Source: Salipiger mangrovisoli
Lineage (GTDB): Bacteria; Pseudomonadota; Alphaproteobacteria; Rhodobacterales; Rhodobacteraceae
Assembly (NCBI RefSeq): GCF_015223355.1
Contig: NZ_JADFFK010000006.1
Location: 124,001-188,000, forward strand
Direction: 5' to 3'
Length of the DNA stretch: 64,000 nt
A program made the translations under genes and the position numbers. Shown here in pieces: positions 11,102 to 42,017 of this stretch; the stretch's first letter is position 1, and every line of letters begins with the position of its first letter. The notes beneath the pieces were generated by a model that was not told the origin of the DNA, searched no databases, and was given only the letters and a program-made list of their open reading frames with translations.

Positions 11102-11118
11102 CAAGTATAAACAAGAAT
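11102..11118 (+). promoter_or_regulatory. CAAG(A/T)AT direct repeat in the divergent promoter region of motA
   Basis: CAAGTAT (11102-11108) and CAAGAAT (11112-11118) are exactly 10 bp apart, one helical turn, and a further CAAGTC lies at 11127. This spacing is typical for paired winged-helix (OmpR-type) binding. The same CAAGAA core recurs before other flagellar operons in this window. The regulator is not known. Confidence 0.4.
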
Positions 11119-11157
11119 AGATAAGACAAGTCGAAGAACTGTTCGGGGCCGCTGATC

Positions 11158-12234
11158 ATGAACGCCGAAAAACTCGCTTATTTCTTCGAGGCCGCGGAGC
11201 TTCAGACGGTGTTCGCCGACTGGCCGGACGAGATCGGGCTTGCGCTCTGCCTCGACGAGGCCGGGAGCTGCGAGATGGTGCTGCACCATGTCGAGGAGGG
11301 CCGGGCGGTTCTGCGCAAGGTCGGCGCGGTGCTGGACAGCGCCAAGGGCGGCTTCGCCGTGGTTCCGCCGGTCGAAGGGTACCCAACGCGCCGCGTGCTG
11401 TTCTCGGACGAGCAAAAGCTGTTGAAGCTGGTGGCGGGCGAGGATGACCTTGCCGAGATGGCCGAGGACTACCTGATCAACTATCGCTTCGAGCAGGACC
11501 GCAAGGCGCGTCCCGCCCCCATGCGCGTGATGGAGGCGATGCCCGAGGCCGTGGCGACGGCACTGCGTGGGCCCGAACCCTTCCGCTGGCGCCCGCGCCT
11601 GCACCTTTCGGAGCTGACGCCGAAAAGTGTCGCCCGCCGCAAGTCAAAGCGTGGCGAGATGCCCGAGGGCTACGCCTCGGCAGAGGTTGTCTCGGACAGC
11701 GATTGCCTGTTCGTCGAGGCCGAGGTCAGCCTTGGGTATCGCGGCGTGCGTGTGACGCTGAGCCCGGAGCTTGTGACCATCCAGACGCGCGCGGTGCTGG
11801 TGGATGAGGTTGGTTTCCGCGATGACTTCTCGCGCTTCGTGCTGCCGCGGAAGGCCGTGCAGGGCTGGGTGCCCGGCGCGCCGCTGGTCATCGACATCCC
11901 CGAGACCCGCTTTCCCGCCGGACTGCGGCAGCGCTTCGCTGCCTCGCCGCGCACGGCGGAAGTGACCGTGACCGATCATGGCGTCTTCGTCGCGCCGGGT
12001 GCCGTGAGCCGCGCGGCGGAGCCCGCCGTGCCCGAGGCGCAGCCGCAGGCCGAGGTGCTGGCAAGGCCGCGCCGGGCGCGCCGCCTTTTCACGCCGGTGC
12101 GCGTTGCGCTGGCGGTGCTGACCGGCGCAGGGCTGATGACCGGGACCATGATGCGGGCGGTGGAGCTGCCCACGGGGCTCGCCACCCCGGTGCTCGAGAT
12201 CGCTTTTGACGCGGCGGAGAGGACGGGGCGTTGA
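11158..12234 (+). CDS. Uncharacterised membrane-anchored protein, divergent from motA
   Basis: A 358-residue protein I do not recognise. Residues 1-300 look cytoplasmic and soluble, with an early acidic part (YFFEAAELQTVFADWPDE) and a beta-rich middle. A basic stretch RPRRARR and a single hydrophobic helix (VRVALAVLTGAGLMTGTMM, about residues 320-340) then precede a short tail. It shares its promoter region with motA and is followed by a possible small ORF and the TPR-glycosyltransferase on the same strand. A motility role is inferred only from position. The ATG 11158 start fits the beginning of coding-like composition. Confidence 0.7.
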   Translation: MNAEKLAYFFEAAELQTVFADWPDEIGLALCLDEAGSCEMVLHHVEEGRAVLRKVGAVLDSAKGGFAVVPPVEGYPTRRVLFSDEQKLLKLVAGEDDLAEMAEDYLINYRFEQDRKARPAPMRVMEAMPEAVATALRGPEPFRWRPRLHLSELTPKSVARRKSKRGEMPEGYASAEVVSDSDCLFVEAEVSLGYRGVRVTLSPELVTIQTRAVLVDEVGFRDDFSRFVLPRKAVQGWVPGAPLVIDIPETRFPAGLRQRFAASPRTAEVTVTDHGVFVAPGAVSRAAEPAVPEAQPQAEVLARPRRARRLFTPVRVALAVLTGAGLMTGTMMRAVELPTGLATPVLEIAFDAAERTGR

Positions 12235-12407
12235 TGCGCCCGGCGCGCCCTGCGTTCCGTCCCGCCGCGGATGATCTTCTTGCGTCCACGGTTTTGACCG
12301 GTCCTGGCCATAACGGGCTCCGTGCCCCTGCGCCGCGTGACATCCCCGCGGCCGCGCGTGTCGCCGGATCGGCGGCATATTCCCATATCCCGAAGGAGGC
12401 CCCATGA
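12234..12407 (+). CDS. Possible 57-residue coupled small ORF
   Basis: ATG 12234 overlaps the stop of the preceding gene (TGATG), and its TGA overlaps the ATG of the next gene (ATGA at 12404), so the frame fills the gap exactly. The product would be basic and rich in Ala, Pro and Arg, with no recognised domain. About two thirds of third codon positions are G or C, lower than in the neighbours, which argues against a real protein. It may act as a coupling leader or be chance. Confidence 0.25.
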   Translation: MRPARPAFRPAADDLLASTVLTGPGHNGLRAPAPRDIPAAARVAGSAAYSHIPKEAP

Positions 12408-14257
12408 ACGTCCACGCCCTTACGCGCAAGGAAAAGCGGGCCCTCTCTGCGAGGGGTGCGAAGCTCTACGGCATCGGCGGCGACTCCGCGGTTTCGCTGT
12501 TTCAGGCCTACCAGTGCCTGAAGGTCGGCAATCTGGCCGAGGCCTGCCAGCTGGTGCTGCCGCTCACCAAGTCGGTTCCCGAGAACCCCCATGCGTGGAT
12601 CGTTCTGGGTCTCGCGGCCCTGAACCGGCGCGAGGGCCAGACCGCCAAGGCGTTCTTCAGCAAGGCGGCGGAAAGCGCGCCCAAGTCGGTTGACGTGATC
12701 ACCGGTCTGGCCAAGGCGCATTTCTTCTGCGCCGAGCCGGACGAAGCCGTTGCGAAGATGGAAGAGGCGTTTGCGGCCGGGAACACCGAGGTCGAGTTGA
12801 TGGTGCTCTACCTGTCGGTCATGGAACTGTTTGACCGGGTCCCGGCTGCGGCAAAGGTGCTCGAGCCGCTCATGGACAAGGTCAAGAGCGTCGAACTGAG
12901 CCGGACGGTCGGCGTCAAGCTGGCGGAATGCGAGAGCTACAAAGAGGCGGGGCTTTGGCTCGATCGCGCGCATCGGATCGCGCCTGAGAGCGAACTGGGC
13001 AGGCTTGCGGCGGCATCTGCCTGCTTCCAGCGCGGCGAAATGGCGGAAGCAGAAGCGCGCGCTCGCGAATTGCTTGCGGAGGGGGTCAACGACCGCGAGG
13101 ACGCCTTGATGACCCTCATTGGCGCGCTCCGCTTCCAGTCGAAGCATGACGAGGTGCTCGCGCTGGCTGAGGGTCATGTTTTCAGCGATCCCGTCATGCA
13201 TGGCCGCGCGCGCGCCTTCGTGGCCAATGCCTATCACGACCTTGGACTGCGCGCCGAGGCGCGGCAGGCCTATCTCGAGGCAATGCAGTCTGCGAGCGAG
13301 GAGCGTTCGATCGCGCGGGCCTACGGGGCCTTCTGTTTCGGCCACGGCGAGTATGACGAGGGCGTACCGCATTACCTGAAGCGCCTGCCGGAGAGCTACC
13401 GCAGAACGGTGCCCGTGGAAAACGCTTCGGCGGAAAACCTGGAGCGGGAAAAGCGCCTCTACGTGATGAGCGAACAGGGGGTCGGCGACCAGTTGGCGCT
13501 GCTGACGCTGGTGCGTCTCCTGCCCGAGCTCAAGGGTCGAGAAATTGTCTTCGTCGCGGACCGGCGGGAATCGGTGCTGCTGCTGGGCAATGCGCTGGGG
13601 ATCTCGGTGGTCACGAAAGGCGATTTCAAGCTCCACGGCATGGGCGTGTCCAGGCAACAGATCGTCGCGCTGGGTGATCTCGTTCGCTTGCTGCCGGGAC
13701 AACCGGCCGATGCCCGTCAGGGCGGGTACCTCGCACCGCGGGCGGATGCCGTGAGCGAACTGCGCGCGCGTTATCGCAGCCTCGCCGGAGATCGCCCGAT
13801 CTTCGGCATGGCTTGGGCTGCGCGGGGGCTCATCGGCACGTTGCGCTCTGTCGATCTGGCCGAGATGGTCGGCATCCTGCCTCCGAATGCCTTCGTCGTG
13901 AGCCTGCAGTACGGGGACACCGACGCGGAGATCGCCGCCGCCCGCGCCGCGCGACCGGACGTCGAGATCCATTGCGATCCGCTGGTTGACCAGATGGCCG
14001 ATCTCGCGGCCTTCGCCGCGCAATGTGCCGCGGTGGACCGGATTGTCACCATCGACAACACCACCGCGCATGTGTGCGGTGCCCTTGGGCATCCCGAGAC
14101 GCACATGCTGGTGCCGGAGGGCGCGGAATGCATGTGGTACTGGGGCGCGGAGGTCCGTCAGGACCCCTGGTATGGTGTGCTCAAGCTGCACCGTCAGGCA
14201 AAGGTCGGCGACTGGAGCGCGAGCTTCGCCTCGGTGCGCGAGGCGCTCGCCGGTTAG
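12404..14257 (+). CDS. TPR protein with C-terminal GT9-like glycosyltransferase domain
   Basis: 617 residues. The first 330 or so are helical repeats of the tetratricopeptide type (for example the segment VPENPHAWIVLGLAALNRRE). The C-terminal half looks like the GT-B fold seen in heptosyltransferase-like and OGT-like TPR enzymes. It contains a glycine-rich segment SEQGVGDQLALL near residue 358, and near the end IDNTTAHVCGALGHPE, ECMWYWG and WYGVLKLHRQ, which match the usual D-T-x2-AH-x2-GA-G and W-Y-x-LHRQ pattern. RBS GAAGGAGG precedes ATG 12404. Enzymes of this build glycosylate proteins or glycans in the cytoplasm. Inside a flagellar cluster the natural guess is flagellin modification; this is inference. 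Its stop overlaps the stop of the opposing regulator gene. Confidence 0.75.
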   Translation: MNVHALTRKEKRALSARGAKLYGIGGDSAVSLFQAYQCLKVGNLAEACQLVLPLTKSVPENPHAWIVLGLAALNRREGQTAKAFFSKAAESAPKSVDVITGLAKAHFFCAEPDEAVAKMEEAFAAGNTEVELMVLYLSVMELFDRVPAAAKVLEPLMDKVKSVELSRTVGVKLAECESYKEAGLWLDRAHRIAPESELGRLAAASACFQRGEMAEAEARARELLAEGVNDREDALMTLIGALRFQSKHDEVLALAEGHVFSDPVMHGRARAFVANAYHDLGLRAEARQAYLEAMQSASEERSIARAYGAFCFGHGEYDEGVPHYLKRLPESYRRTVPVENASAENLEREKRLYVMSEQGVGDQLALLTLVRLLPELKGREIVFVADRRESVLLLGNALGISVVTKGDFKLHGMGVSRQQIVALGDLVRLLPGQPADARQGGYLAPRADAVSELRARYRSLAGDRPIFGMAWAARGLIGTLRSVDLAEMVGILPPNAFVVSLQYGDTDAEIAAARAARPDVEIHCDPLVDQMADLAAFAAQCAAVDRIVTIDNTTAHVCGALGHPETHMLVPEGAECMWYWGAEVRQDPWYGVLKLHRQAKVGDWSASFASVREALAG

Positions 14258-14937
14258 AGCGGGGCGTCGCCCTCCAGCACATAGCCCTGCGCCCGGATCG
14301 TGCGCACCTGGAGCGCATTGCCATACTGCTCGGCCAGTTTCTTGCGGATGCGGGCGATGTGAACGTCGAAGCGCCGGTCGCCGTAGGCCCATTCGCCGCC
14401 GGTCACCTCGGTCGCGAGCAGGGCGCGGCTGACGATCTGTCCGCGCCGGGCATGCAGGCAGGCAAGGATGCGCTCCTCGAGGGGGGTGAGGCCAAGCTGG
14501 ACGAGCCGGGCAGCGCGTTGCCCGGCGAGAGACGCCCTTTGCAGGCGCACCGACAGCCGGGCCAGCATTTCCGAAGGGTCGTGGTCGGCGCGGAGCGCGT
14601 CGTCGGCACCCGCGGCGAAGATCTCGGCGGCGCCGCGCGCGCGGTTGCCATGATCGACCGCGAGGATCACCGCATCGGGGGCGTGCCGGCGGACGCCGAC
14701 AATCAGGCCGAGCATGTCGTCATCGCGCGGCAGGTGGGCGGAAAGCCCGACGATCATCGCGGTGAGGGGCACGTCGGGCGCCATCAGGTCGCGCGCTTCC
14801 GCAGGGCGCGCGCGCCGGAGCACCCGGCGCAGACCGCTCCGTTCCAACAGTTCGGACCAGGCGTTGCGCTGCGCCGTGTCGCGTTCCACCACGACCGCGA
14901 AGGAAGCGCGCTGGATCATTGCGGCAGGCTCGGACAA
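14254..14937 (-). CDS. OmpR-type winged-helix regulator with degenerate receiver domain
   Basis: 227 residues. The C-terminal half is a clear OmpR/PhoB DNA-binding domain: LTPLEERILACL, then DVHIARIRKKL and VRTIRAQGYVL. The N-terminal 120 residues have the receiver layout but lack the key residues: AVVVERD stands where the acidic pair should be, AMIVGLSAH where the phosphoacceptor Asp should be, and ILAVDHG where the Thr/Lys region should be. It therefore probably works without phosphorylation. Its stop (TAA 14254-14256) overlaps the stop of the convergent glycosyltransferase gene. It is divergent from the mucR-like gene at 15058. Together with the FtcR-like protein at 30503 it makes a pair of pseudo-receiver regulators in this flagellar cluster; direct targets are unknown. 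Confidence 0.8.
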   Translation of the reverse strand: MSEPAAMIQRASFAVVVERDTAQRNAWSELLERSGLRRVLRRARPAEARDLMAPDVPLTAMIVGLSAHLPRDDDMLGLIVGVRRHAPDAVILAVDHGNRARGAAEIFAAGADDALRADHDPSEMLARLSVRLQRASLAGQRAARLVQLGLTPLEERILACLHARRGQIVSRALLATEVTGGEWAYGDRRFDVHIARIRKKLAEQYGNALQVRTIRAQGYVLEGDAPL

Positions 14938-14993
14938 GGTTTCGACAAATTTTTTCCCATGACTTGGCGTAAGATTTTTATATTCAACATGGA

Positions 14994-15047
14994 TTAACCT
15001 TCAATTCCTATTTGCCTGTTCAGGAGAAGACCAAAGTCACCAAGAAG
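14994..15047 (+). promoter_or_regulatory. TTAACC half-site and CAAGAAG before the first mucR-like gene
   Basis: TTAACCTTCA (14994-15003) shares ten bases with the site before the sigma-factor gene (18028) and fits half of a CtrA box. CCAAGAAG lies at 15040-15047. Both are in the 120-bp divergent region between the winged-helix regulator and the mucR-like gene. Confidence 0.35.
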
Positions 15048-15057
15048 AGACTAGGAA

Positions 15058-15327
15058 ATGGGTAAAGAGTTGCAGCGGTTGCTGTTGCGGTTTCTGGGGC
15101 GCATCCGACGGCCGGACGCGCTGCCCGTGGCCGAAACATATTCGATGCTGACCTGTCGCGAAACCGGCATGCAAAAGCCGCTCCTGCGCAGGCACCTGCG
15201 CGAGGTGCTCGGCATGACGCCCGAGGAGTACCGCAGGAAATGGCGGCTGCCTCAGGACGCGCCACTGGTTTCGCAAGCCTATCTCGACCGGCGGGAAGCC
15301 GCTCGAAACATGGAGTGGGAAGGTTAA
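15058..15327 (+). CDS. MucR/Ros-like regulator with a damaged zinc finger
   Basis: 89 residues. The segment LTCRETGMQKPLLRRHLREV followed by LGMTPEEYRRKWRLP and APLVSQAY aligns with the MucR/Ros domain, in which CxxC and HxxxxH ligands bind zinc before a 'MTPEEYR-W-LP-P-V-Y' tail. Here the second Cys is replaced (CRET) and the second His is missing, so metal binding as in the family is doubtful. The protein is shorter than typical MucR (about 140) because the N-terminal oligomerisation part is reduced. It lies directly upstream of an intact mucR-like gene and may be a modulator or antagonist, or may bind DNA without zinc. That is inference. Confidence 0.7.
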   Translation: MGKELQRLLLRFLGRIRRPDALPVAETYSMLTCRETGMQKPLLRRHLREVLGMTPEEYRRKWRLPQDAPLVSQAYLDRREAARNMEWEG

Positions 15328-15340
15328 ATTGCCCATAGGG

Positions 15341-15424
15341 CAAGAATCTATGTAAAGTATAAGTGCAATCCCCGTCGACGGGCGCGCTTGTTCAAGGACA
15401 GAAAAGTCAAGAACAGGCAAGAAC
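15341..15424 (+). promoter_or_regulatory. Cluster of CAAGAA motifs before the mucR-motB operon
   Basis: CAAGAAT occurs at 15341-15347, CAAGGAC at 15393, and CAAGAAC at both 15408-15414 and 15418-15424. The last two are a direct repeat with exact 10-bp phasing. The block lies in the leader of the intact mucR-like gene. It is the densest example of the motif shared by the flagellar promoters in this window. Confidence 0.45.
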
Positions 15425-15486
15425 GGACAGAAGTGCGTTTGGTCCCGGCGATGCGACAGCAGAATGACGATCGGCAGGATAAGAAT

Positions 15487-15918
15487 ATGAACGGACATGA
15501 CGAATCGCAGGACATGGTGGCCCGGATCGTGGCCGCCTACGCGTCCCGCCCGGACGTGACTCCGGATGAAATCGTGAACCTTTACCGGCGCCTGACCGGC
15601 GAAGTTCAAGAGACGCCCGCGGCACGGGCGCCGCAGGCTCCTGCCGCCGGGGCGGGCGGAATGCACCCGGCGCTTCCCGTGGCGCAGGCCGTGACCGAGG
15701 ACAAGGTGTACTGCCTGTGCTGCGGCCGCGGCTTCAAGATGCTGAAGCGCCATCTCGGCGCCGAGCACGGCATGACCGAGGCGCAATATCGCGCGGCCTT
15801 CAATCTTGCCGAGGAGTTTCCGCTGGTGGCACCGAGCTACTCGCGCAAGAAGGCCGCCCATGCCAAGGAAGCCGGGCTCGGCAAATACGACCGCACCGTG
15901 ATGGTGGGGCAGGAGTAA
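15487..15918 (+). CDS. mucR: MucR/Ros-family zinc-finger transcriptional regulator
   Basis: 143 residues from ATG 15487. This start gives the usual MucR N-terminus (DMVARIVAAYASRPDVTPDEIVNLY split by a short linker from the finger) and has AGGA upstream; the frame itself stays open further 5'. The zinc finger is intact: CLCCGRGFKMLKRHLGAEHG with Cys-x2-Cys and His-x4-His ligands, then MTEAQYR and FPLVAPSY. MucR proteins are alphaproteobacterial H-NS-like regulators of exopolysaccharide, motility and cell-cycle genes. The gene lies 9 bp before motB and is probably cotranscribed with it, so it may regulate the flagellar cluster locally. Confidence 0.87.
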   Translation: MNGHDESQDMVARIVAAYASRPDVTPDEIVNLYRRLTGEVQETPAARAPQAPAAGAGGMHPALPVAQAVTEDKVYCLCCGRGFKMLKRHLGAEHGMTEAQYRAAFNLAEEFPLVAPSYSRKKAAHAKEAGLGKYDRTVMVGQE

Positions 15919-15927
15919 GAGCGCGAA

Positions 15928-16935: not shown

Positions 16936-17261
16936 TGCCTGCAAAGCGTGCTCGGGAAAGTAGCGGCAAAACTCACCATATCTAGTGTTCTCTTTGCCGC
17001 ACAAAGCTGTATATCCACACGTAATTTGCGGAATGTTAAGGAAACTCAGAGGGTGTGGGTGGCGATCTCTGCGATGGAAGCAGGAATGCTCGATGTGAAA
17101 ATCCTTGCAAACACAGGGATTTCACTGCGCGACTCGCACTCCTTCATCTAGCATCCAGAAAGATCAAGACCTCAATATCTAGGAGGTCGATTTACATTTG
17201 GTGGGTTTGCGAGGATCCGCTCAAAACCTACTGTGTACCCGGGGAAAGACTCACTTGGGGC
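16936..17261. other. Intergenic region after motB, no gene seen
   Basis: About 325 bp of comparatively AT-rich sequence with no supportable gene. The frame of the next protein stays open through it back to 17055, but the translation there (many Cys, Arg, Ser) does not look like protein. It most likely holds the promoter of the next gene. Confidence 0.4.
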
Positions 17262-18041
17262 ATGGGTAAACGGATGCGTAGCGGGGACATTCTGCGTTTA
17301 ATCTGGCGGGAGGGCGTGGCTCTTCCGGAAGTGGAATTCGGGGTCAGGTTTCAAATGGCGCTGACGGCGATCCTGCCGGTACAGGCAGAGACCCTGATGG
17401 CTCGCGGCGACTGCAGGCATCCGCTTGTCATGGCCGACGAGCTGGAATTGGCCCCTGCATTGCCACTCGGCGACGTGCTCGTCGAAGAGCTGCCGCTCGA
17501 TCTGCCTTATGGCACGATGGTGGTGATGCTGCCTGTATCGGGCGTCTCGTTTTCGCAGCTCCTGGGTGAAACCGTTGCCGAAGCGCTGCTGCTGGCACAG
17601 AGCCTTGGCGGTGTGCCGATGGAGCATGAGACCGACGCGCTCTACATCATGGCGCATGCGGCGATGCGCCGAGCCGCCGCACTTGGTCGTGAAGGACATG
17701 AAGTTGAGCCGCAGGGCTTCTGCCGCGGTCTCGGGCGGAGCCTGTCGCGCCACTGGCTGGCCGAGCGCAGGCCGCTTTTGCCCGATCCCATGCTCTTCTC
17801 GCGGTCTGATTTCCTTTGGCAGCGGCAGCTGGCGGTGTATCTCGCGGACCTTGATCCGGGGTTCTCCTCGCCCGATCCGCTGCTGGTTCCAGAGGATCTG
17901 CTCAGCGTCTCCGATACACCGCTTCGCCTGAGCGACTGGGTCAGCCGCACAGAGACCATGCTGCGTGCGGTCATGGGCGCGCCAGAGCGCGAGTATATGC
18001 CGCTAAAGGCGAGTTTTGCTGCTCGATTTAACCTTCAGTAA
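17262..18041 (+). CDS. Uncharacterised protein upstream of the flagellar sigma factor
   Basis: 259 residues from ATG 17262; a start 12 bp later is equally possible. No family is recognised. The protein is soluble-looking and Leu-rich, without signal peptide or membrane helix. It has short conserved-looking parts such as MVVMLPVSGVSFSQLLGE and a C-terminal DWVSRTETMLRAVMG. Codon use matches the neighbours, so it is probably real. A role in flagellar regulation or assembly is suggested only by its place between motB and the sigma factor/fliK/flgD genes. Confidence 0.6.
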   Translation: MGKRMRSGDILRLIWREGVALPEVEFGVRFQMALTAILPVQAETLMARGDCRHPLVMADELELAPALPLGDVLVEELPLDLPYGTMVVMLPVSGVSFSQLLGETVAEALLLAQSLGGVPMEHETDALYIMAHAAMRRAAALGREGHEVEPQGFCRGLGRSLSRHWLAERRPLLPDPMLFSRSDFLWQRQLAVYLADLDPGFSSPDPLLVPEDLLSVSDTPLRLSDWVSRTETMLRAVMGAPEREYMPLKASFAARFNLQ

Positions 18042-18042: not shown

Positions 18043-18082
18043 TCATTATATTCTTCCTGATATCAAAGAATTGTGTTTACTT

Positions 18083-18100
18083 ATTCTTGCAGGCAAGAAT
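18083..18100 (+). promoter_or_regulatory. Perfect CAAGAAT inverted repeat before the sigma-factor gene
   Basis: ATTCTTGCAGGCAAGAAT is an 18-bp perfect palindrome, 17 bp before the sigma-factor start. It is the most symmetrical copy of the CAAGAA motif found in front of several flagellar operons here. Its position close to the start fits an operator, or an mRNA hairpin that would sequester the ribosome site. Confidence 0.5.
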
Positions 18101-18117: not shown

Positions 18118-18867
18118 ATGATGTCCATGACGTACCAGGCAGCGATGCGCGAGCCGTTCCTCGACATAGAGCAGGAGCGCAGGGCCATTTGCAGCTGGCA
18201 GGATAGCGGGGACCGCAAGGCCCTCGAATTGTTGCTGCGGTCGCACGCACGGCAGGCGTGGTCGCAGGCGGCGCGGTTCACCGACAACCCGGTGCACCTC
18301 GAGGATTTGGCGGCGGAAGGCTTCCTCGGGCTCATCAAGGCCGCCGACTGCTTCGATCGGCAGCAGGAGGTGCGCTTCTCGACCTATGCCGCATGGTGGG
18401 TGATGAACGGGATTTCCGGCGCGCTGGCGCGGATCAAGGCGGTGATCGACATTCCTGCGCGCACCTATCTTGACGCGCAGACAGGCAAGCTGTCCGAGGA
18501 AGAGCGCGCGCGCATCCGCATGGCGACCCACGGGATCATCGCGCTCGACGGGGGTGAAGATGATGAGGACGGGCGTCCGCGCGATATCCTCGTCTCGGGC
18601 GAACCCGGCCCCGAAGAGCTTGTGACGCTGGAAAGCGAGCGGGCGATGCTGACCCGGCTGCTGGCGGAGGCGCTCGAGCCGATGACCCCGGAAGAAGCCG
18701 AGGTGATCCGTCGGCGACGCCTGCAGCCCGACCCCGAGCCCTTCGGCAGCATCGCACGCGATCTCGGCGTGTCGCAGGACCGCCTGCGCCAGGTTGAGAA
18801 GCGCGCCATGCTGCGGCTTCGGCGCAATCTGATCGACAAGGGGTTCTCTCGGGCGGTGCTGACATGA
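18118..18867 (+). CDS. Sigma-70 family factor, divergent RpoH-like, in the flagellar cluster
   Basis: 249 residues. Region 2 is clear (EDLAAEGFLGLIKAADCFDRQ, split here by one residue from VRFSTYAAWWVMNGI), and region 4 ends with the HTH DLGVSQDRLRQVEKRAMLRLR. The spacing resembles RpoH, but the RpoH box (QKKLFFNLR in the family) is absent, so it is not a normal heat-shock sigma. Its stop overlaps the start of fliK (ATGA), so it is cotranscribed with fliK and flgD. It probably directs RNA polymerase to flagellar promoters in place of, or beside, FliA; this is inference. No strong ribosome site is seen and the start could also be ATG 18121 or 18127. Confidence 0.8.
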   Translation: MMSMTYQAAMREPFLDIEQERRAICSWQDSGDRKALELLLRSHARQAWSQAARFTDNPVHLEDLAAEGFLGLIKAADCFDRQQEVRFSTYAAWWVMNGISGALARIKAVIDIPARTYLDAQTGKLSEEERARIRMATHGIIALDGGEDDEDGRPRDILVSGEPGPEELVTLESERAMLTRLLAEALEPMTPEEAEVIRRRRLQPDPEPFGSIARDLGVSQDRLRQVEKRAMLRLRRNLIDKGFSRAVLT

Positions 18868-24620: not shown

Positions 24621-24633
24621 CATTCTTTTCTTG
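24621..24633 (-). promoter_or_regulatory. CAAGAA motif before flgF
   Basis: On the minus strand the sequence CAAGAAAAGAATG lies about 30 bp upstream of the flgF start, within the 102-bp region divergent to the TPR-like gene. It is a tandem of the CAAGAA/AAGAAT core found before other flagellar operons. Confidence 0.35.
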
Positions 24634-24694
24634 ATGATGATGCGTGTTTTGCTAAGATAACGCAAGCATAATGATGATGAAGCGGGCATAAGCG

Positions 24695-26551
24695 GTGGTC
24701 TATTCTTGTGCAATCGCAGGGAAACGTGTGGCGGTCTTGGCGCTGTTCCTCTGCGCCTGCCCGGCCTTGGCGGAGCGCGCCGGTCCGCAGCATTTTGCGC
24801 AGGTCACCCCGGCGGCGATCTCCGAGCCCCGCGTGATCGATCCGCCGGCGCTCTACCTCGGGCAGCGGGCCGAGGAGCCCTTCATCGAGGAACGGGCGCG
24901 GTTGATGGAGGCGGTGATCGCCGCCGGCGACCGGCAGCCCGATCAGGCGCGGGCCTTGACCGATCTGGCCGAGTTCTTCTTCGCGCATGCCATGGCGCCC
25001 GAGGGGCTTTCCGTGCTGGGTGGCGTGGCGGGTGAGGCGGTGCCGCCCGCCCATCTGTTGCGCGCGCGGGCTTTCGAACTGGCGCTCGGGCTGATCGATA
25101 CGCGCGGGCGGCCATTGACGCCCCGCGCCGAAGCCCTGCTCGATCCTCCGCATTCTGCCTGGCCCGATCAGCCGCTGTTTCTTGCACTCTCGCACATTCG
25201 CGACGGAAACTGCGTGGATGCCCGGCCCCTGCTCGAACAGGCGACAGCGCGCCTCGCGCGCTTCCCGGCGCCGGTGCGGGCGCAGGTGCTTCCCGGCCTT
25301 CTGCAATGCGCGATCGAAACCGGGCAGTGGTACCTTGCGCGAGATATTGCTGTCTCGTTCGAGGGGTACGCCGAGTTGAGAGACGGCACGGCATATTACT
25401 ACCTGCTCGGGCAGGTGGCCGAGACGGTTGACGAGCCGTTGGCCGCCTTCGACAGCTACATGCATGCGATCACTGGCCGCGATATCTGGGCGCACCGGGC
25501 GCGCCGGGCGTTGGTCACGCTGGGCCTTACGCGCGATGCCCTCTCAACCCCAGACGCGATCCGCCTGCTGAAGCTGGAGGCGGAGATGTGGCGCGGCGAC
25601 GAGTCTTCGGGCGCGGTGATGGATCAGCTTGCCTCGCTGCAGGTGATCTCGGGGCGCAAGACGGACGCGATCGAAACCTACGGCTTGCTGATCGCGCGGC
25701 TGGCGGGCACCACGTCAGCGACCGCCGCGCAGCAGAAGGCGCGGGCGCTGATCGAGGACATCTACCGCAGGGGCGCCGAGGGTGAGATCCCGCTGGGCCG
25801 TTTCATGGCGGATCACGAGCGCATCGCGCGCTATTTCCGCTTCACGCAGAGTTTCGCGCTGGCCTCGGAGTTGTTTGCAGACACCTTCCGCAAGGCGGGT
25901 GCAACCAAGGTTGCCGCCGAAGAATATGCCACCACTCACGATTACCTTACGGCGGCGCAGGATCTGGGCATCACCACCGCAGAAGAGGGCCAATTGGCGC
26001 GTCTCAAGGTGAAAGAGGCCGAGACCCTGCTGGCGGGCGGTCAGTTCGAGGCCCTGGGAGCGTTGCTGTTGCAGCCGATTGCCCTGACGGACCCGGTGTT
26101 GAAGCGCCGCTTCGACCTGGTTTCGGCGCGCTATTTCGATGAGACCGGCCAAACCGTGGAGGTGCTCGCTGACGGGCAGGACACGCCGGACGGCGAAGCG
26201 ACGACGCAGCTGCTGCGCCTGCGCGCCTTGGCGCGGTTCGAGCGTGGCGAATGGCCGGCGGCCAAGGCCTCTTATGCGCGGCTCTACGCGCGTGAGGGCA
26301 ACGAGATGCCCTTGCCGGACGCCATTCGCTACCTGCTCTCGGCGCATCGCAGTGGCGACAGCGCGCGCGCGGCGGACCTGGCCGGGCAATTCCCGAGCCT
26401 GACCGAGCTGCCGGGCTGGGCTGAGATCGCGCGCGGGCTGACGCGGGAAGCCCCTGCCTTGTTGCCGCTGCGCGAAGAAACCGCGCGGGCGCGGATCGAC
26501 AAGGCCCAGGAAACCCTCGACAGCCTTCCCGAGGTGGAGCGCCTGAACTGA
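24695..26551 (+). CDS. Large periplasmic helical-repeat protein, divergent from flgF
   Basis: 618 residues from GTG 24695. A GTG at 24728 with AGGGA ahead is an alternative and puts the signal peptide at the start (VAVLALFLCACPALA). The rest is a long alpha-helical solenoid with TPR-like helix pairs (for example LADGQDTPDG then LLRLRALARFERGEWPAAKA). It has no catalytic motif and no membrane anchor beyond the signal. By topology and place it recalls the periplasmic motor protein MotC of rhizobia, but I see no sequence proof. It stands alone between flgF and flgE, with divergent promoters. Confidence 0.7.
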   Translation: MVYSCAIAGKRVAVLALFLCACPALAERAGPQHFAQVTPAAISEPRVIDPPALYLGQRAEEPFIEERARLMEAVIAAGDRQPDQARALTDLAEFFFAHAMAPEGLSVLGGVAGEAVPPAHLLRARAFELALGLIDTRGRPLTPRAEALLDPPHSAWPDQPLFLALSHIRDGNCVDARPLLEQATARLARFPAPVRAQVLPGLLQCAIETGQWYLARDIAVSFEGYAELRDGTAYYYLLGQVAETVDEPLAAFDSYMHAITGRDIWAHRARRALVTLGLTRDALSTPDAIRLLKLEAEMWRGDESSGAVMDQLASLQVISGRKTDAIETYGLLIARLAGTTSATAAQQKARALIEDIYRRGAEGEIPLGRFMADHERIARYFRFTQSFALASELFADTFRKAGATKVAAEEYATTHDYLTAAQDLGITTAEEGQLARLKVKEAETLLAGGQFEALGALLLQPIALTDPVLKRRFDLVSARYFDETGQTVEVLADGQDTPDGEATTQLLRLRALARFERGEWPAAKASYARLYAREGNEMPLPDAIRYLLSAHRSGDSARAADLAGQFPSLTELPGWAEIARGLTREAPALLPLREETARARIDKAQETLDSLPEVERLN

Positions 26552-26622
26552 GCGGTGCTAGGTGCCAAGATCAGGCATGATTCAGTCGCGCGGCGCCGAA
26601 ATTAATACAAGTAAAGGCAAAT

Positions 26623-26630
26623 TTAACCAT
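26623..26630 (+). promoter_or_regulatory. TTAACCAT CtrA-type half-site before flgE
   Basis: TTAACCAT is a known variant of the CtrA recognition octamer. It lies 70 bp before the flgE start in an AT-rich stretch. The inverted repeat GGCAAA/TTTGCC (26616-26621, 26643-26648) brackets it. Confidence 0.4.
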
Positions 26631-26699
26631 GGTGAAACCTGGTTTGCCTAAGTGATCAGTCAACTGCGGTTCAACTGCGACCAATAGGGCGAGACGGAC

Positions 26700-29476: not shown

Positions 29477-30535
29477 ATGATCTACCTAAGCAAAGGCCCA
29501 TCGACGCTCTACTCGAGCCTGCTGCGCCGGAACCAGAACGCCGAAGCGGCCAGCGCCCTGTCGCGGGCCGAGCAGGAGCTGTCCACCGGATATAAGGCCG
29601 ACGTCTACAAGTCGATTGGTCTCGGGGCGACCGAGGCCCTCAGCCTCAACGCCACGCTGGATCGCGACGAGGCGCAGTCGACGACCAACAAGCTCGTGCT
29701 GTCCCGTCTCGAGATGATCACCCAGTCGCTGGGCGCGATGCGCGAGTCGGTCCAGGATGTGCTCGACGTGGCGGTGTCCAATGCCGGTCAGGCCACCGAC
29801 GCGTCTTCGGGCATGCAGATCGCCGCAAAGGCGGCGCTGGATGCGTTCATCGGCCAGGCTGGCCAGGCTTACGGTGGCAGCGCGCTGTTCGCCGGAACGT
29901 CGAATGTCACCAATGCGCTGCAGGGCTGGTCCGAAACGCAGGCCGGAAGCGGCCTCTCGCCGCAGGGGGTCATCGGGGGCCTGCTGTCCGGCGGATTGAA
30001 TTCGGTTGCCGACGTCGACAGCGTGCTGGCCGAGATCGACGCGATCTTCTCCGACAGCGCCACCGATCCGGACACCAACTTTCAGACGCTTTTCTACAAC
30101 GGCTCGACCGGCACCGCGCCTGCGCGCGCCAATCTGGGGGACGGCGTCAGCATTTCCTATGGTGTGCAGGCCGACGCCGAGCCGTTCCGGCAGGTTCTCA
30201 AGGGCCTGGTCATGCTCGCGTCCTACGATCCCGCCTCGATCTCGGACAGCGCCGCTTATTCGAGCTGGGTCAACGAGGCGATCACGGCGATCTCGGCGGG
30301 GACCGCGGGGCTGCTCGATGCCGAAACGCAGGTCTCTACCGTGGCGGCGCGGCTCGAGTCGCAGAACGAGCAGATCGCGGATCGGGCGGTGCTCTACAAG
30401 ACCCGCCTCATGGAGTTGGATGGTGTCGATGCCTATGACGCGGCCAGCAACGTCACCATGCTGCAAGCCCAGCTCGAAGCCAGCTACACGGTCAGCGCGC
30501 GCCTATCCAACCTGAGCTTTCTGAACTACATGTGA
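29477..30535 (+). CDS. flgL: Hook-filament junction protein FlgL (HAP3)
   Basis: 352 residues with flagellin-like ends: an N-terminal helix with AEQELSTGYKADVYKSIG and a C-terminal helix ending LQAQLEASYTVSARLSNLSF. FlgL is the last junction piece before the filament. It follows flgK by 14 bp with GGAG ahead of the ATG. Its last 33 bp overlap, on the other strand, the 3' end of the FtcR-like regulator. Confidence 0.92.
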   Translation: MIYLSKGPSTLYSSLLRRNQNAEAASALSRAEQELSTGYKADVYKSIGLGATEALSLNATLDRDEAQSTTNKLVLSRLEMITQSLGAMRESVQDVLDVAVSNAGQATDASSGMQIAAKAALDAFIGQAGQAYGGSALFAGTSNVTNALQGWSETQAGSGLSPQGVIGGLLSGGLNSVADVDSVLAEIDAIFSDSATDPDTNFQTLFYNGSTGTAPARANLGDGVSISYGVQADAEPFRQVLKGLVMLASYDPASISDSAAYSSWVNEAITAISAGTAGLLDAETQVSTVAARLESQNEQIADRAVLYKTRLMELDGVDAYDAASNVTMLQAQLEASYTVSARLSNLSFLNYM

Positions 30536-31294
30536 TGCACTCGCGAGGCTGAGGCGCGGCGCCTCGGCCTCGCGGCCGGCCTCGGCGCCGGGTGCCAACT
30601 TGTAGCCGCGCCCGCGGATGGTTCGGATGTGCGGGTCGCCAGACGGCGACATTTCCTCGATCTTCTTGCGAATGCGGCAGATGTAGACGTCGATCACCTT
30701 GTCGAAGGGCTGATCCTCGGCCATGCCGTAGACCGCGTCATAGATCACCGATTTCGACACCACGCGCGGCGCTGCCAGCGCGATCTGCTGGAAGATTGCC
30801 AGCTCGCGCTGCGACAAACGCATCGGGGTGCCCGCCACGTCCGGGTCGCGCCCGTCGAAATAGGCGGTGACATCCCCGATTCGAACCGATCCGGCAGCAT
30901 GGCCGTGGAACCGGCGCGTGATGGCGTTCACCCGCGAGCGCAGCTCGGGCCCGGTCAGCGGGCCGACGATGTCATCATCGGCACCGGCGTCGAGCGCTTC
31001 CATCGCGGCTTCGGGGTCGCGCTGGTCGCGCAGCACCAGGATCGGGTTCCGGCAGCCGGATTTCCGCAGGCGGAAAATGTGTTCAAGTGTGCGCGGTTGC
31101 TCCGAGAGCAGGACCGGGCGGTCGGCGTAGCCGTCGCTGCTTAGAAGGTCCAGCTCGCGCTCGAAGAAATCATCGCTGACGGCGACCGGCTGCCACTGCG
31201 CCGCGTCCAGTTCGGACAGCAGGCCGCTGAAGGCATTCGAACGGGGCTCGTAAAGATAGATATGCAAACTGCTCTCCCGAAGGCCGACCGACAC
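30503..31294 (-). CDS. FtcR/Rem-like flagellar winged-helix regulator with degenerate receiver
   Basis: 263 residues. The C-terminal OmpR-type domain is well kept (LSQREL..FQQIALAAPRVVSKS, DVYICRIRKKIEEM, IRTIRGRGYKLAP) and resembles the CtrA/FtcR/Rem group. The receiver-like N-terminus has no phosphoacceptor Asp (PVLLSEQPR where it should be), as in orphan flagellar activators of rhizobia and Brucella, so control is probably by its own level. A 35-residue tail follows the DNA-binding domain and overlaps flgL antisense. It is divergent from flgI. It is the best local candidate for an activator of the flagellar operons; the FtcR name is by analogy. Confidence 0.82.
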   Translation of the reverse strand: MSVGLRESSLHIYLYEPRSNAFSGLLSELDAAQWQPVAVSDDFFERELDLLSSDGYADRPVLLSEQPRTLEHIFRLRKSGCRNPILVLRDQRDPEAAMEALDAGADDDIVGPLTGPELRSRVNAITRRFHGHAAGSVRIGDVTAYFDGRDPDVAGTPMRLSQRELAIFQQIALAAPRVVSKSVIYDAVYGMAEDQPFDKVIDVYICRIRKKIEEMSPSGDPHIRTIRGRGYKLAPGAEAGREAEAPRLSLASASHVVQKAQVG

Positions 31295-31345
31295 TCGTTA
31301 TCCATGATTGGATGACCTGATCATGCGAAGAATTTTTCGTGAGGT

Positions 31346-31363
31346 CAAGCAATACACAAGGAT
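31346..31363 (+). promoter_or_regulatory. Weak CAAG repeat between the FtcR-like gene and flgI
   Basis: CAAGCAAT (31346-31353) and CAAGGAT (31357-31363) are spaced 11 bp apart in the divergent region. They are imperfect relatives of the CAAGAAT motif and would fit autoregulation of the regulator together with flgI control. Confidence 0.25.
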
Positions 31364-31451
31364 AGCATGATTAGTTTGGAAATTGTCATTGAATAGTTTG
31401 GCGATACGATGTTTAGTCCTTGAAACACAGGACCGCAGCCCAGGGAGTCCC

Positions 31452-33305: not shown

Positions 33306-33307
33306 AT

Positions 33308-33322
33308 TTAACCCCCGATTAA
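33308..33322 (+). promoter_or_regulatory. Perfect CtrA box before flagellin 1
   Basis: TTAACCCCCGATTAA is an exact TTAA-N7-TTAA match to the CtrA consensus. Its end lies 95 bp before the flagellin start, the same place as the box before flagellin 2. It begins right after the flgN stop. Confidence 0.75.
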
Positions 33323-35506: not shown

Positions 35507-35544
35507 TTCCTCTGGAATATGCGCGACTTCTGATGGCATAAGGA

Positions 35545-37305: not shown

Positions 37306-37309
37306 AACC
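37279..37309. terminator. Hairpin between convergent DUF1217 and fliG
   Basis: GGTTTCAGCGG (37279-37289) and CCGCTGAAACC (37299-37309) form a perfect 11-bp stem over a 9-nt loop. It overlaps the final codons of the DUF1217 gene and stands 12 bp from the fliG stop. No clear U tract on either strand, so it may block both transcripts or stabilise mRNA ends. Confidence 0.55.
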
Positions 37310-37320
37310 TGGCGCGCGAC

Positions 37321-38376: not shown

Positions 38377-38398
38377 CAGGCGGCTCCAATCATATGTG

Positions 38399-39250: not shown

Positions 39251-39573
39251 TCTTCGGACACGTAGTCCTTGACGATCTCGATCAGCGAGACGCCCAGCCG
39301 GTCATCCGGCAGGCGCACCAGATCGCCGCGCGCCACGAGACGTTCGTTGATCATCACCTCGACCGGCTGGCCGATGCTCTTGTCGAGTTCGATGATCGAG
39401 CCGCGGCTGAGCTTCAGGAGTTGCGCGATCGGCATGCGGGTCTGGCCCAGCACGATCTGCACGTTCAGCCCGACGTTCAGCATCGCATCGATGCCTTGGC
39501 CGCTCTCTGCCGGCTTGGGGGCCGCGGCGGCGGCTCCGGTCTCGGACTGCTTGGTCTCTGCCTCGTCCATCAT
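39247..39573 (-). CDS. fliN: Flagellar motor switch protein FliN
   Basis: 108 residues. A short Ala/Glu-rich N-terminus precedes the SpoA domain (LNVQIVLGQTRMPIAQLLKL, then GSIIELDKSIGQPVEVMIN and GVSLIEIVKDY). It forms the lower switch ring with FliM and anchors FliH. The start ATG 39573 could also be the next codon. The gene is in the fliF-H-N-P-G operon. Confidence 0.94.
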   Translation of the reverse strand: MMDEAETKQSETGAAAAAPKPAESGQGIDAMLNVGLNVQIVLGQTRMPIAQLLKLSRGSIIELDKSIGQPVEVMINERLVARGDLVRLPDDRLGVSLIEIVKDYVSEE

Positions 39574-39576
39574 GTC

Positions 39577-40245
39577 TTAGTCTCCTGCCTGATCCTGCCC
39601 GATCGCCGCGTCGATGCGCGCCTTGCTGCTCTCCAGCGCGCCGAGGATGCGTTCGCAGATGTCGTTGAAACTGTAGGTCATCACGCCGTGGTCCCATTCG
39701 GCCCGCACATCCCCCGGAGCGAGGGCGGGGTCGGGCTTGACCTCGACGCGCCCGCCAAAGCCGGACTGTCGCGCGATGCGGTGAATCTCGGCGCCGCTGG
39801 TTTCGGTGACCTCGGGTGCGAAGCGCAGCTTCAGCTCCGCCGCGCCAAGCGCCATGCGGACCGCGCCGCGGGCTTCCTGCAGGGCTTCCTGCTCGGCAAG
39901 CGCCGCACCTGCCGCCGGCGCGACCTGCCGCAGAACCGAGAGCGCAAAGCCGACCATCTGCGATTCCAGCACCGCGTGGTGCCGGTCAGCATCGGCGAAG
40001 AGCGCCTGAAGCGCGGGGCCGACGGCTTCCATCGCGGTCACCTGGCGCGCGCTGCTGCTCTGCTGCGCCGCGTTCGAGGCCTCGTCCCGGCCCTGCGCGA
40101 GCCCGGCCTCGAAGCCCTCGGTCCGGGCCTCGCTCATCGCGGCGTCGAACTCCGCGCGGGTGTAGATCGCACCGATCTTGGCCTGCTCGCCGCGGCGCTG
40201 CGCGTCGGCTTCGGCATCGAAGTTGCGGTCGAAGATGAAGCTCAT
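39577..40245 (-). CDS. fliH: FliH-like export ATPase regulator
   Basis: 222 residues. The N-terminus is charged. The middle has ARTEGFEAGLAQGRDEASNA, a GxxxG-type helix usual in FliH, followed by a helical C-terminal half (RQVAPAAGAALAEQEALQEA). FliH holds the FliI ATPase at the export gate; no fliI is nearby. It overlaps fliF by 4 bp. The call relies on the helix pattern and the operon order. Confidence 0.78.
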   Translation of the reverse strand: MSFIFDRNFDAEADAQRRGEQAKIGAIYTRAEFDAAMSEARTEGFEAGLAQGRDEASNAAQQSSSARQVTAMEAVGPALQALFADADRHHAVLESQMVGFALSVLRQVAPAAGAALAEQEALQEARGAVRMALGAAELKLRFAPEVTETSGAEIHRIARQSGFGGRVEVKPDPALAPGDVRAEWDHGVMTYSFNDICERILGALESSKARIDAAIGQDQAGD

Positions 40246-41951
40246 GTCGCGGACCCTTCTGCCAGCCAGCTCTTCACCACCTTGATCGCGTCTTCGGGCT
40301 CGCGCTCGATCAGCTCACCGACGGTGTTGATCCAGCCGCGCTGGACCCCGCCCTGGACCGAGGCGAAAGACACCATCTCTTCGCTGCCCTCGGGCAGCGG
40401 GTCGAGCACGGTGCCGCTTTGGAAGACCTGCTCCTGACCGCCCTGCGGCGCGTGCAGCTGGGTCACGTTGGATTGACCGGGCAGGCCGGGAGGCGCCTTG
40501 GCGCCGGGCAGTGCCGGAGCGGCTCCGGGGGCCGGCAGGCCGCCCGCCGCGTCGCCGGCACCTGCCGCCGCGCCATTTGCCGCCATCAGCCGGGCAATCG
40601 CGGGGCGGACGCCGAAGGCGAGCACCGCGGCAACCAGCCCCAGCGAGAACAGCCCGCGCAGGATCGTCCCCATGTTCTCTGAGAGAATCTGGGTAAGGCT
40701 GCGCGACGCCGGCTCGCCCACGTCCATCGAGTAGTCCATGAAGCGCAGGCTCACCACCTCGACCGAGTCGCCGCGGGTCTCGTCGAAGCCCATCGCGCTC
40801 TGCACCAGTGCCTGAAGCCGCTCGAGTTCCTCGGCGGTGCGCTCCTCGTATTGGACCGAGCCGTCCGGCTGCACGTTGTAGATGCCGTTGATCAGCACCG
40901 CCACCGACATGCGCTGCACGTCGCCCGGCTCGCGCACTGTCTCGACCTGCTTGCCGCCGATCTCGTAGTTGACGATCTCGTTGTTGCTGTTCGAGCTGTT
41001 GGAATTCATGCCCGGCACGGCATCGGCCAGCGCGGCGGGGACATCGTCGGCAACGCCGACTTCGCCGCTGGCGGCGCGCTGGTCCTGGGTGACCTCTTCG
41101 CGGGTCTCGGTCGAGCGAACGACCCGCTGCTCGGGATCGTAGGTCTGCTCGCGCACCACCTGCCGTTCGCTCGACAAATCGACGCTGACGGTCACGCGGG
41201 CATTGCCCGCGCCGACGCGGGCCGAGAGGATCTGGGTGATGCGCTGGCTCAGCCGGTCCTCGATCTGCGCGCGCGCCGATTGCAGCGACGCCTCGCTGCC
41301 CGCCTCGCCGTCATCGGCAAGGATTGTCTCGCCGGAAGCCGACAGCACGGTCACCTGCGCCGGAGCAAGATCGGGTACCGCGGATGCAACCAGAGAGCGA
41401 ATCGCATGGGCCTGTTTCATCCCGATCTGCCGCGAACCGCGGACGATGACCGAGGCCGAGGGTTTGGGTCTCTCGCGGGAGAAGGGCTCGCGCTCGGGCA
41501 GCACCAGGTGGACCCGCGCCGCCTCGACGCCATCGATGGTCTGGATCGAGCGCGCAAGCTCGCCCTCCATGGCGCGCATCCGGTTCACCCGCTGCATGAA
41601 GCTGTTCATGCCCAGCCCGCTTTGCTCGTCGAACAGCTCCCAGCCCGGCGTGCCTTCGCTGGGCAGGCCAAGCGAGGCCAACTCCATGCGCGCCCGCGCC
41701 ATATCTTCGGCGGGAACGCTGACCGCGGTGCCGGCGGTATCGGTGCGGCTGCGGATGCCCGCGGCTTCAAGCGAGTCGACAATGCGGGCGGCATCGGCGG
41801 GATTCAGGTCGCGATACAGCGAGATATAGTCAGGAGTCGTGACAACGGAGAGGCCGAAAAAGACCGCAAGAACAAGGGCAAGACCCGTTCCTCCAAGCAC
41901 CGAGAGCCGTCGCCAGCCCAGCGATTTGAGATTTTCCAGTATCGCCTGCAC
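40242..41951 (-). CDS. fliF: Flagellar MS-ring protein FliF
   Basis: 569 residues. It has two membrane segments (about residues 20-40, VLALVFFGLSVV-like, and about 430-450) and ring-building motifs: YISLYRDLNPADAARIVDSL, VPAEDMARARMELASLGLPS, and YIPLYRD-like repeats. The Asn/Ser-rich region GMNSNSSNSNNEI is in the periplasmic loop, and the C-terminus (EELIEREPEDAIKVVKSWL) binds FliG. It heads the operon and is divergent from fliL. The promoter region between them carries several CAAGAA motifs. Confidence 0.95.
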   Translation of the reverse strand: MQAILENLKSLGWRRLSVLGGTGLALVLAVFFGLSVVTTPDYISLYRDLNPADAARIVDSLEAAGIRSRTDTAGTAVSVPAEDMARARMELASLGLPSEGTPGWELFDEQSGLGMNSFMQRVNRMRAMEGELARSIQTIDGVEAARVHLVLPEREPFSRERPKPSASVIVRGSRQIGMKQAHAIRSLVASAVPDLAPAQVTVLSASGETILADDGEAGSEASLQSARAQIEDRLSQRITQILSARVGAGNARVTVSVDLSSERQVVREQTYDPEQRVVRSTETREEVTQDQRAASGEVGVADDVPAALADAVPGMNSNSSNSNNEIVNYEIGGKQVETVREPGDVQRMSVAVLINGIYNVQPDGSVQYEERTAEELERLQALVQSAMGFDETRGDSVEVVSLRFMDYSMDVGEPASRSLTQILSENMGTILRGLFSLGLVAAVLAFGVRPAIARLMAANGAAAGAGDAAGGLPAPGAAPALPGAKAPPGLPGQSNVTQLHAPQGGQEQVFQSGTVLDPLPEGSEEMVSFASVQGGVQRGWINTVGELIEREPEDAIKVVKSWLAEGSAT

Positions 41952-41981
41952 GTGTTCTGCGCCCTGTCATGTCGCCCGTCG

Positions 41982-42017
41982 CAAGAATAAACACAACTGT
42001 TCTTGCTCATCAAGAAC
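41982..42017. promoter_or_regulatory. CAAGAA motif array between fliF and fliL
   Basis: CAAGAAT at 41982-41988 and the inverted repeat GTTCTTGctcatCAAGAAC at 41999-42017 lie in the 147-bp divergent region. A TTAACC CtrA-type half-site follows at 42073. Both fliF and fliL operons could be controlled from here. Confidence 0.5.

What the first reader, a model, noticed from the sequence alone, without database searches (positions are those of the whole stretch)
11102..42017. A recurring CAAGAA(T/C) motif in the promoter regions of the flagellar operons
CAAGAA-type sites occur at 11112, 15041, 15341, 15408, 15418, 18083-18100 (perfect palindrome ATTCTTGCAGGCAAGAAT), 24628, 41982, 41999 and 42011 (inverted repeat GTTCTTGctcatCAAGAAC). 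All lie in short regions before flagellar genes. This many copies in little more than 1 kb of GC-rich intergenic DNA is far above what chance should give. Two pairs (11102/11112 and 15408/15418) have exact 10-bp spacing, as winged-helix dimers need. It suggests an operator for a dedicated flagellar regulator, with the FtcR-like protein, the second pseudo-receiver regulator or MucR as candidates.
Basis: partly seen in the sequence, partly recalled or inferred. Interest (0 to 1): 0.75.

Follow-up and report, generated by a model that had tools for sequence, protein, structure and literature searches.

The report
DNA switch sites of fla2 flagella
A short DNA box, TATNCTTG, sits on the start sites of many genes of a horizontally spread marine-bacterial flagellum and looks like the docking site of a repressor, most likely the zinc-finger protein encoded in the same gene cluster.

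Summary
The motif is real and far above chance, but CAAGAA(T/C) is only part of it. The conserved half-site is TATNCTTG (reverse complement CAAGNATA). The window holds a fla2-type flagellar cluster of an Alloyangia/Salipiger-like bacterium. Across 25 fla2 clusters (some read only in part), boxes recur at the same promoters (motA, sigma, flgF, ctrA-like/flgI, fliF/fliL) and at a flgB/fliI promoter 69 kb before the window. They are nearly absent from the flgE, flagellin and ftcR/mucR promoters, which more often carry CtrA-type TTAA boxes. The tandem form (10-11 bp period) occurred in 12 of 394 family genomes, 7 of them at the fla2 motA promoter. Boxes overlap predicted -35, -10 or start-site elements, as repressor operators do. 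FtcR has no recognisable ortholog in three motif-bearing genomes; sigma and the CtrA-like regulator are missing from two motif-bearing clusters. The zinc-finger MucR is the only one of these regulators found in all 25, and its relative Ros reads a similar half-site (TATATTTCA). Best reading: a fla2-wide operator, probably of the fla2 MucR acting as repressor (operator about 0.9; MucR as reader about 0.5). A new member of a known kind. No binding was tested.

The parts
11102..11119 (-). tandem box CAAGTATA-AA-CAAGAATA (minus strand TATTCTTG-TT-TATACTTG), 10-bp period, upstream of and overlapping the motA -35
   Evidence: conserved in Salipiger-type relatives, Pseudooceanicola, Primorskyibacter and five further genomes
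11077..11104 (-). motA core promoter, TTGAAC-N16-TATGCT (inferred)
11090..11118 (+). possible promoter of the 11158 gene, TTGACT-N17-AAGAAT, its -10 inside the box (inferred)
   Evidence: the same element is visible in relatives
18082..18100 (.). inverted box TATTCTTG-CAGG-CAAGAAT at the predicted start of the sigma-gene transcript, next to a -10-like TTACTT (18077-18082) (promoter inferred)
   Evidence: Marinovum has CTATCCTTG-N4-CAAGGATAG
24621..24633 (.). CATTCTTTTCTTG, just downstream of the flgF -10-like hexamer
24663..24670 (-). CAAGCATA box; includes the flgF -35 (TTGCGT 24665-24660), -10 CATCAT 24642-24637 (inferred)
24701..24708 (+). TATTCTTG box 19 bp before the 24728 gene
31343..31364 (-). 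CAAGCAATA...CAAGGATA tandem (CAAG to CAAG 11 bp) before the CtrA-like gene, overlapping -35 TTGACC (31348-31343); -10 CATGAT at 31325-31320 (inferred)
41982..41989 (-). CAAGAATA box; contains the fliF -10-like TATTCT (inferred)
41999..42017 (.). inverted repeat GTTCTTG-CTCAT-CAAGAAC; covers the fliF -35-like TTGATG (inferred)
42032..42063 (+). fliL core promoter TGCTTGCTT-N17-CATAGT (inferred); in several relatives its -35 is TATACTTG
15490..15918 (+). zinc-finger MucR/Ros-family protein, preferred reader of the box
15058..15327 (+). small MucR-like protein lacking the zinc ligands
14254..14937 (-).
30503..31294 (-). CtrA-like regulator, probably a reader of TTAA boxes rather than of this box
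18118..18867 (+). RpoH-like sigma factor of the fla2 cluster
33308..33322 (+). CtrA-type box TTAACCCCCGATTAA before the flagellin gene (contrast class)

Best explanation
TATNCTTG is the half-site of an operator that marks six promoter regions of the fla2 flagellar system: motA, sigma, flgF/24728, ctrA-like/flgI, fliF/fliL and flgB/fliI. It occurs singly, as direct repeats of 10-11 bp, or as inverted repeats. Because it overlaps the predicted -35, -10 or start site, its reader most likely blocks RNA polymerase. The best candidate reader is the cluster's own zinc-finger MucR/Ros protein. In this model MucR holds down the early fla2 operons, including the sigma and CtrA-like genes, until it is relieved; the CtrA-like protein (or CtrA) then drives late genes through TTAA boxes. 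Shown by computation: box, conservation, placement relative to genes, promoter classes, co-occurrence. Inferred: core promoters, repression, MucR as reader, order of events.
For: Enrichment: CAAGNATA 7 seen vs 0.14 expected in the cluster's intergenic DNA. In 59 box-class promoter sequences of 11 representative lineages there are 136 half-sites (at most 1 mismatch outside CTTG) vs 13.2 +/- 3.5 in 100 shuffles. Strict boxes in motA 10 of 11, sig 5 of 11, flgF/24728 7 of 11, ctrA-like/flgI 8 of 8, fliF/fliL 7 of 8, flgB/fliI 9 of 10 sequences; contrast: ftcR/mucRs 0 of 5, mucR 1 of 7, flgE 1 of 11, flagellin 0 of 8, gap before the 20890 gene 0 of 7. Five further promoters of Pseudooceanicola/Primorskyibacter (ctrA-like/flgI 3, fliF/fliL 2) all have a strict box. 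Five clusters found through their motA box: 18 boxes in 2,578 bp of other box-class promoters (11 of 20 promoters) vs 0 in 1,870 bp of contrast promoters (0 of 14). Unlinked test: the flgB/fliI promoter 69 kb before the window carries CAAGGATA. Family scan: tandem form in 12 of 394 genomes, 7 at motA. Placement. MucR in 25 of 25 clusters (for 21; for 4). Zinc ligands kept in the 5 full-length MucR aligned; the one PDB match is Ros, 2JSP, and the ros-box half-site is TATATTTCA (PMC9779718, passages).
Against: No binding or expression data. MucR proteins are described as reading AT-rich DNA of low consensus (PMC9779718, passages), and the ros-box differs at two of the specified half-site positions. 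Recurrent 10-11 bp direct repeats fit a winged-helix regulator as well. Single boxes are not exclusive to fla2. The two promoter classes are not clean: TTAA boxes with at most one mismatch also occur in ctrA-like/flgI 4 of 8, fliF/fliL 4 of 8, sig 3 of 11, flgB/fliI 3 of 10 and motA 1 of 11 sequences, and 3 of 8 flagellin promoters lack one. In G128 strict boxes were seen only at motA and fliF/fliL. S. pontiacus motA and the G064/G065/G066 flgB/fliI promoters have no strict box. Losses of sigma and CtrA-like were judged on the fetched clusters, not on whole genomes. The mucR promoter itself mostly lacks strict boxes (1 of 7).
Confidence: 0.5

Rival explanations
1. The box is the operator of an OmpR/PhoB-type winged-helix regulator (CtrA-like 30503, FtcR-like 14254, or a chromosomal one) that binds tandem direct repeats.
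For: Direct repeats of 10 bp (motA) and 11 bp (ctrA-like) overlapping -35, and direct-pair distances grouped at 10-12, 19-21, 27 and 30-34 bp with none at 13-18 or 22-26.
Against: No recognisable FtcR in three motif-bearing genomes nor in the G128 cluster. CtrA-like missing from the G128 and G283 clusters, and its recognition helix closely follows that of CtrA. Of the five later clusters the three with CtrA-like have a perfect TTAA-N7-TTAA at the flagellin gene; the two without it have none (one has a one-mismatch copy). Inverted repeats occur at sig, fliF/fliL and Sulfitobacter flgB/fliI. The distances come from few promoters seen in many relatives, so they are not independent.
Confidence: 0.22
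2. The box is a recognition element of the cluster's own RpoH-like sigma factor rather than an operator.
For: RpoH-type sigma factors read CTTG at -35 (recalled). In several promoters the box is the -35 of a CTTG-N19/20-[CT]ATNNT promoter, and in fliF and flgB it coincides with a -10-like hexamer. The sigma gene was found in 23 of the 25 clusters.
Against: The same box cannot be both -35 and -10 of one sigma. No partner element stands out at a fixed distance over all sites. Tandem and inverted arrangements are not expected. Sigma is missing from the G128 and G283 clusters, which keep boxes.
Confidence: 0.13
3. The box is read by a host (chromosomal) regulator not encoded in the cluster.
For: Single boxes occur elsewhere in the genome.
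Against: The cluster type is spread between genera, often on plasmids (PMC12363192 passages), and keeps its boxes, which favours a regulator that travels with it. Paired forms outside fla2 are nearly absent in this genome.
Confidence: 0.13
4. The repeats are a chance product of AT-rich promoter DNA.
For: The cluster's intergenic DNA (GC 0.523) is AT-richer than the sampled coding DNA of the genome (GC 0.678).
Against: Shuffles, permutations, intergenic background, conservation and the later-fetched clusters all speak against it.
Confidence: 0.02

Closest known systems
ros-box / RosR-box of Agrobacterium Ros and Rhizobium RosR
   Different: The core is CTTG rather than TTTC; also occurs as direct repeats and single boxes; the paired forms seen here belong to one flagellar system
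MucR repression of flagellar genes in Brucella via ftcR
   Same: A MucR protein and an FtcR-type regulator act on flagellar genes (PMC9779718, passages)
   Different: Here the boxes lie directly on structural-gene promoters, and the ftcR/mucR promoters mostly lack strict boxes
CtrA box (TTAA-N7-TTAA; recalled consensus)
   Same: Half-sites repeated about one helix turn apart at flagellar promoters
   Different: Different letters; within fla2 the two boxes favour different promoters, with overlap
OmpR/PhoB-type tandem operators
   Same: 10-11 bp direct repeats overlapping -35 at two promoters
   Different: Inverted and single boxes elsewhere; the two clustered OmpR-type proteins are each missing from some box-bearing clusters
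fla2-type flagellar gene cluster (Marinovum algicola pMaD5)
   Same: Same genes and largely the same order; the window cluster belongs here
   Different: In the window genome the flgB/fliI genes lie about 69 kb before the window's start on the same contig

Membership tests
fla2-type flagellar gene cluster | Similarity and gene order of the Marinovum algicola DG898 reference cluster | tested here: met
   reference named in PMC12363192 (passages)
Ros/MucR protein family | ROS_MUCR domain | tested here: met
   E 6.9e-33; Ros structure 2JSP E 1.8e-17
Ros/MucR protein family | Zinc ligands C-x2-C ... H ... H (positions recalled) | tested here: met
   kept in 5 of 5 full-length fla2 MucR aligned; not in the small 15058 protein
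ros-box | Inverted repeat TATATTTCA/TGTAATATA | tested here: not met
   resemblance only: TATNCTTG agrees at the TAT and TT positions, differs at two (by eye)
ros-box | Bound by a Ros/MucR protein | not testable with these tools
   needs a binding assay
CtrA box | TTAA-N7-TTAA | tested here: not met
   the TATNCTTG box differs; TTAA boxes are counted apart
OmpR/PhoB tandem operator | Direct repeats with 10-11 bp period at the target promoters | tested here: inconclusive
   met at motA and ctrA-like; inverted pairs at sig, fliF/fliL and Sulfitobacter flgB/fliI
Sigma-factor promoter | Two elements at one fixed spacing | tested here: not met
   no partner fixed over all sites; the core promoters found use the box in different roles

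The most novel reading that the evidence does not exclude
A family usually described as H-NS-like, low-specificity silencers (MucR) has here become the sequence-specific, travelling repressor of a horizontally spread flagellum: boxes and repressor move together, letting hosts that already own a fla1 flagellum keep the second one silent until needed.
Probability: 0.3. Interest if true: 0.7.

Novelty: new member of a known kind. Interest (0 to 1): 0.5.

Why it matters
Two flagellar systems in one cell need coordination; the 2025 survey of Rhodobacterales flagella names this as a question with only first indications (PMC12363192, passage read). A named box with defined promoters, a short list of readers and naturally reduced clusters (G128, G283) makes it directly testable in fla2.

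Tried and rejected
CAAGAA(T/C) as the motif itself: rejected, because relatives replace it by CAAGGATA while keeping TATNCTTG.

RpoH-type promoter CTTG-N17-CWTATG at motA as the whole story: rejected as a general rule, since the box sits in different roles at other promoters.

The sigma homolog in G069: not in a flagellar context and no box before it, so uninformative; it was dropped from the cluster counts.

Search for a wider regulon: 40 other genome stretches chosen from the 100 places that one search listed (of 121), 43 sites, 15 called intergenic by a home-made gene caller; no paired form and no functional theme seen by eye in the printed contexts. That caller misses genes (it overwrote the mucR region), so curated gene bounds were used for the cluster.

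Literature: the listings showed no description of this box. Passages were read of two papers only (PMC12363192; PMC9779718). One search searched raw letters: 3,224 papers, 20 listed, by title none on these flagella. Only open-licence papers are held, so absence from print is not proven.
Full report
CHECK. CAAGAA occurs 38 times in the window against 16.25 +/- 4.30 in shuffles. In the 2,419 bp of curated intergenic DNA of the cluster, CAAGAAY occurs 10 times against 0.64 expected from 52.8 kb of intergenic DNA sampled from the same genome. CAAGAA is the commonest of the 30 permutations of its letters there (13, next 7). The sites at 15041-15423 are not full boxes and vary within the genus (CAAGAA at 15041 kept in 11 of 13 clusters, 15341 in 7, 15418 in 5, the 15408/15418 pair in 1).

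WHAT THE CLUSTER IS. The closest named relatives are Alloyangia and Salipiger. The genes match the fla2-type flagellar cluster of Marinovum algicola plasmid pMaD5, the fla2 reference of PMC12363192 (passages and outline read). Annotated fla2-like clusters were also read from Sulfitobacter pontiacus, S. mediterraneus and Roseivivax marinus plasmids.

THE REAL MOTIF. Comparing orthologous promoters of 12 genus relatives, P. batsensis, P. atlanticus, Primorskyibacter and four plasmid clusters shows that the conserved unit is TATNCTTG; CAAGAATA is one version and CAAGGATA another. In 59 box-class promoter sequences of 11 representative lineages there are 136 half-sites (at most one mismatch outside CTTG), against 13.2 +/- 3.5 in shuffles. 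Strict boxes are present at motA in 10 of 11, sig 5 of 11, flgF/24728 7 of 11, ctrA-like/flgI 8 of 8, fliF/fliL 7 of 8, flgB/fliI 9 of 10 sequences. Contrast: ftcR/mucRs 0 of 5, mucR 1 of 7, flgE 1 of 11, flagellin 0 of 8, the gap before the 20890 gene 0 of 7. In one search the ctrA-like/flgI promoters of the three Pseudooceanicola/Primorskyibacter genomes (3 of 3) and two fliF/fliL promoters (2 of 2; the third was cut off) also have strict boxes.

TESTS ON DATA NOT USED TO FIND IT. (a) The fla2 flgB/fliI genes of this genome lie at C66:55204, about 69 kb before the window's start; their 67-bp divergent promoter carries CAAGGATA. (b) In 394 family genomes the tandem pattern TATYCTTG-N2/3-TATNCTTG occurs in 12 (4 genomes for the reversed control); 7 of the 12, and 7 of the 8 with a 2-bp gap, lie between motA and the 11158 gene of a fla2 cluster. 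Two of these seven (the window genome and G066) were already known. (c) The other five clusters were fetched. Leaving out motA, by which they were found, their box-class promoters hold 18 strict boxes in 2,578 bp, 11 of 20 promoters; contrast promoters hold 0 in 1,870 bp, 0 of 14. Promoters longer than 500 bp were cut to the last 150 bp for this count; sequences missing a gene were left out.

PLACEMENT. Core-promoter-like pairs in the window, with similar pairs in several relatives: motA TTGAAC-N16-TATGCT, ctrA-like TTGACC-N17-CATGAT, fliL TTGCTT-N17-CATAGT, flgF TTGCGT-N17-CATCAT, fliF TTGATG-N18-TATTCT. Boxes overlap -35 (motA, ctrA-like, flgF; fliL in relatives), a -10-like hexamer (fliF, flgB) or the predicted start (sig, 24728). 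In flgB the box stays 23-24 bp from the start codon in Alloyangia-type relatives, Marinovum, Pseudooceanicola and Primorskyibacter although the intergenic length differs; Sulfitobacter has 31 bp and a second, inverted box, and G064, G065 and G066 have no strict box there. An activator cannot normally work from over the -10 or start site (general knowledge), so repression is the simpler reading. This is inference: no transcript start is mapped.

WHO READS IT. FtcR: in three motif-bearing genomes the best hits score 54.3 bits or less and are about as close to CtrA-like as to FtcR, while clustered FtcR proteins score 85-224 bits. Sigma and CtrA-like are not found in the G128 and G283 clusters, and FtcR not in G128. 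G283 keeps strict boxes at motA, flgF/24728, flgI, fliF/fliL and flgB/fliI; G128 at motA and fliF/fliL only. The zinc-finger MucR is present in 25 of 25 clusters (21 by search; 4 by annotation and alignment). G069 was left out because it has no flagellar cluster. CtrA-like keeps a CtrA-type recognition helix. Flagellin promoters have a perfect TTAA-N7-TTAA in the three later-fetched clusters with CtrA-like; the two without it have no perfect copy. This suggests that CtrA-like, or CtrA, reads the TTAA class. The split is a tendency: with one mismatch allowed TTAA boxes also occur in 4 of 8 ctrA-like/flgI and 4 of 8 fliF/fliL promoters, and 3 of 8 flagellin promoters lack one. The ros-box half-site TATATTTCA (PMC9779718, passages) resembles TATNCTTG.

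LIMITS. Direct pairs cluster at 10-12, 19-21 and 30-34 bp, which a winged-helix regulator would also explain. Single boxes occur elsewhere in the genome: TATYCTTG 121 times against 27 for the reversed pattern; of 43 sampled sites 15 were called intergenic. Inverted TTCTTG-N3-9-CAAGAA occurs at 3 places in 6.35 Mb, two of them in this cluster. Loss of sigma and CtrA-like in G128 and G283 was seen in the fetched clusters only. Related sequences are not independent, so counts over relatives overstate the number of events.

VERDICT. A real, conserved, fla2-wide operator; repressor-type by placement; fla2 MucR the likeliest reader (0.5).

Noticed in passing
window 18118-18867: RpoH-like sigma factor inside the fla2 cluster, in most fla2 clusters but not found in the G128 and G283 clusters; a 44%-identical homolog in G069 sits in a non-flagellar context.
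   Followed up: partly
G000 contig C66:55204 (outside the window): The fla2 flgB/fliI genes are split from the main cluster (about 69 kb before the window start) on the same contig, and also lie tens of kb away in several genus relatives, while Marinovum has them near motA.
   Followed up: partly
window 15058-15327: Small MucR-like protein without zinc ligands next to the full MucR, present in many fla2 clusters.
   Followed up: partly
window 33308-33322, 26622-26638, 14983-14999: CtrA-type TTAA boxes (one perfect, two imperfect) before flagellin, flgE and the ftcR/mucR region: a second promoter class within fla2.
   Followed up: partly
window 11158-12234, 17055-18041, 24728-26551: Conserved fla2 proteins without any Pfam match (E up to 0.05).
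   Followed up: no
L203, L206, L208, L209, L210: Five tandem-pattern hits in other genomes that show no fla2 gene within about 1.5 kb on either side; four have the 11-bp form.
   Followed up: no
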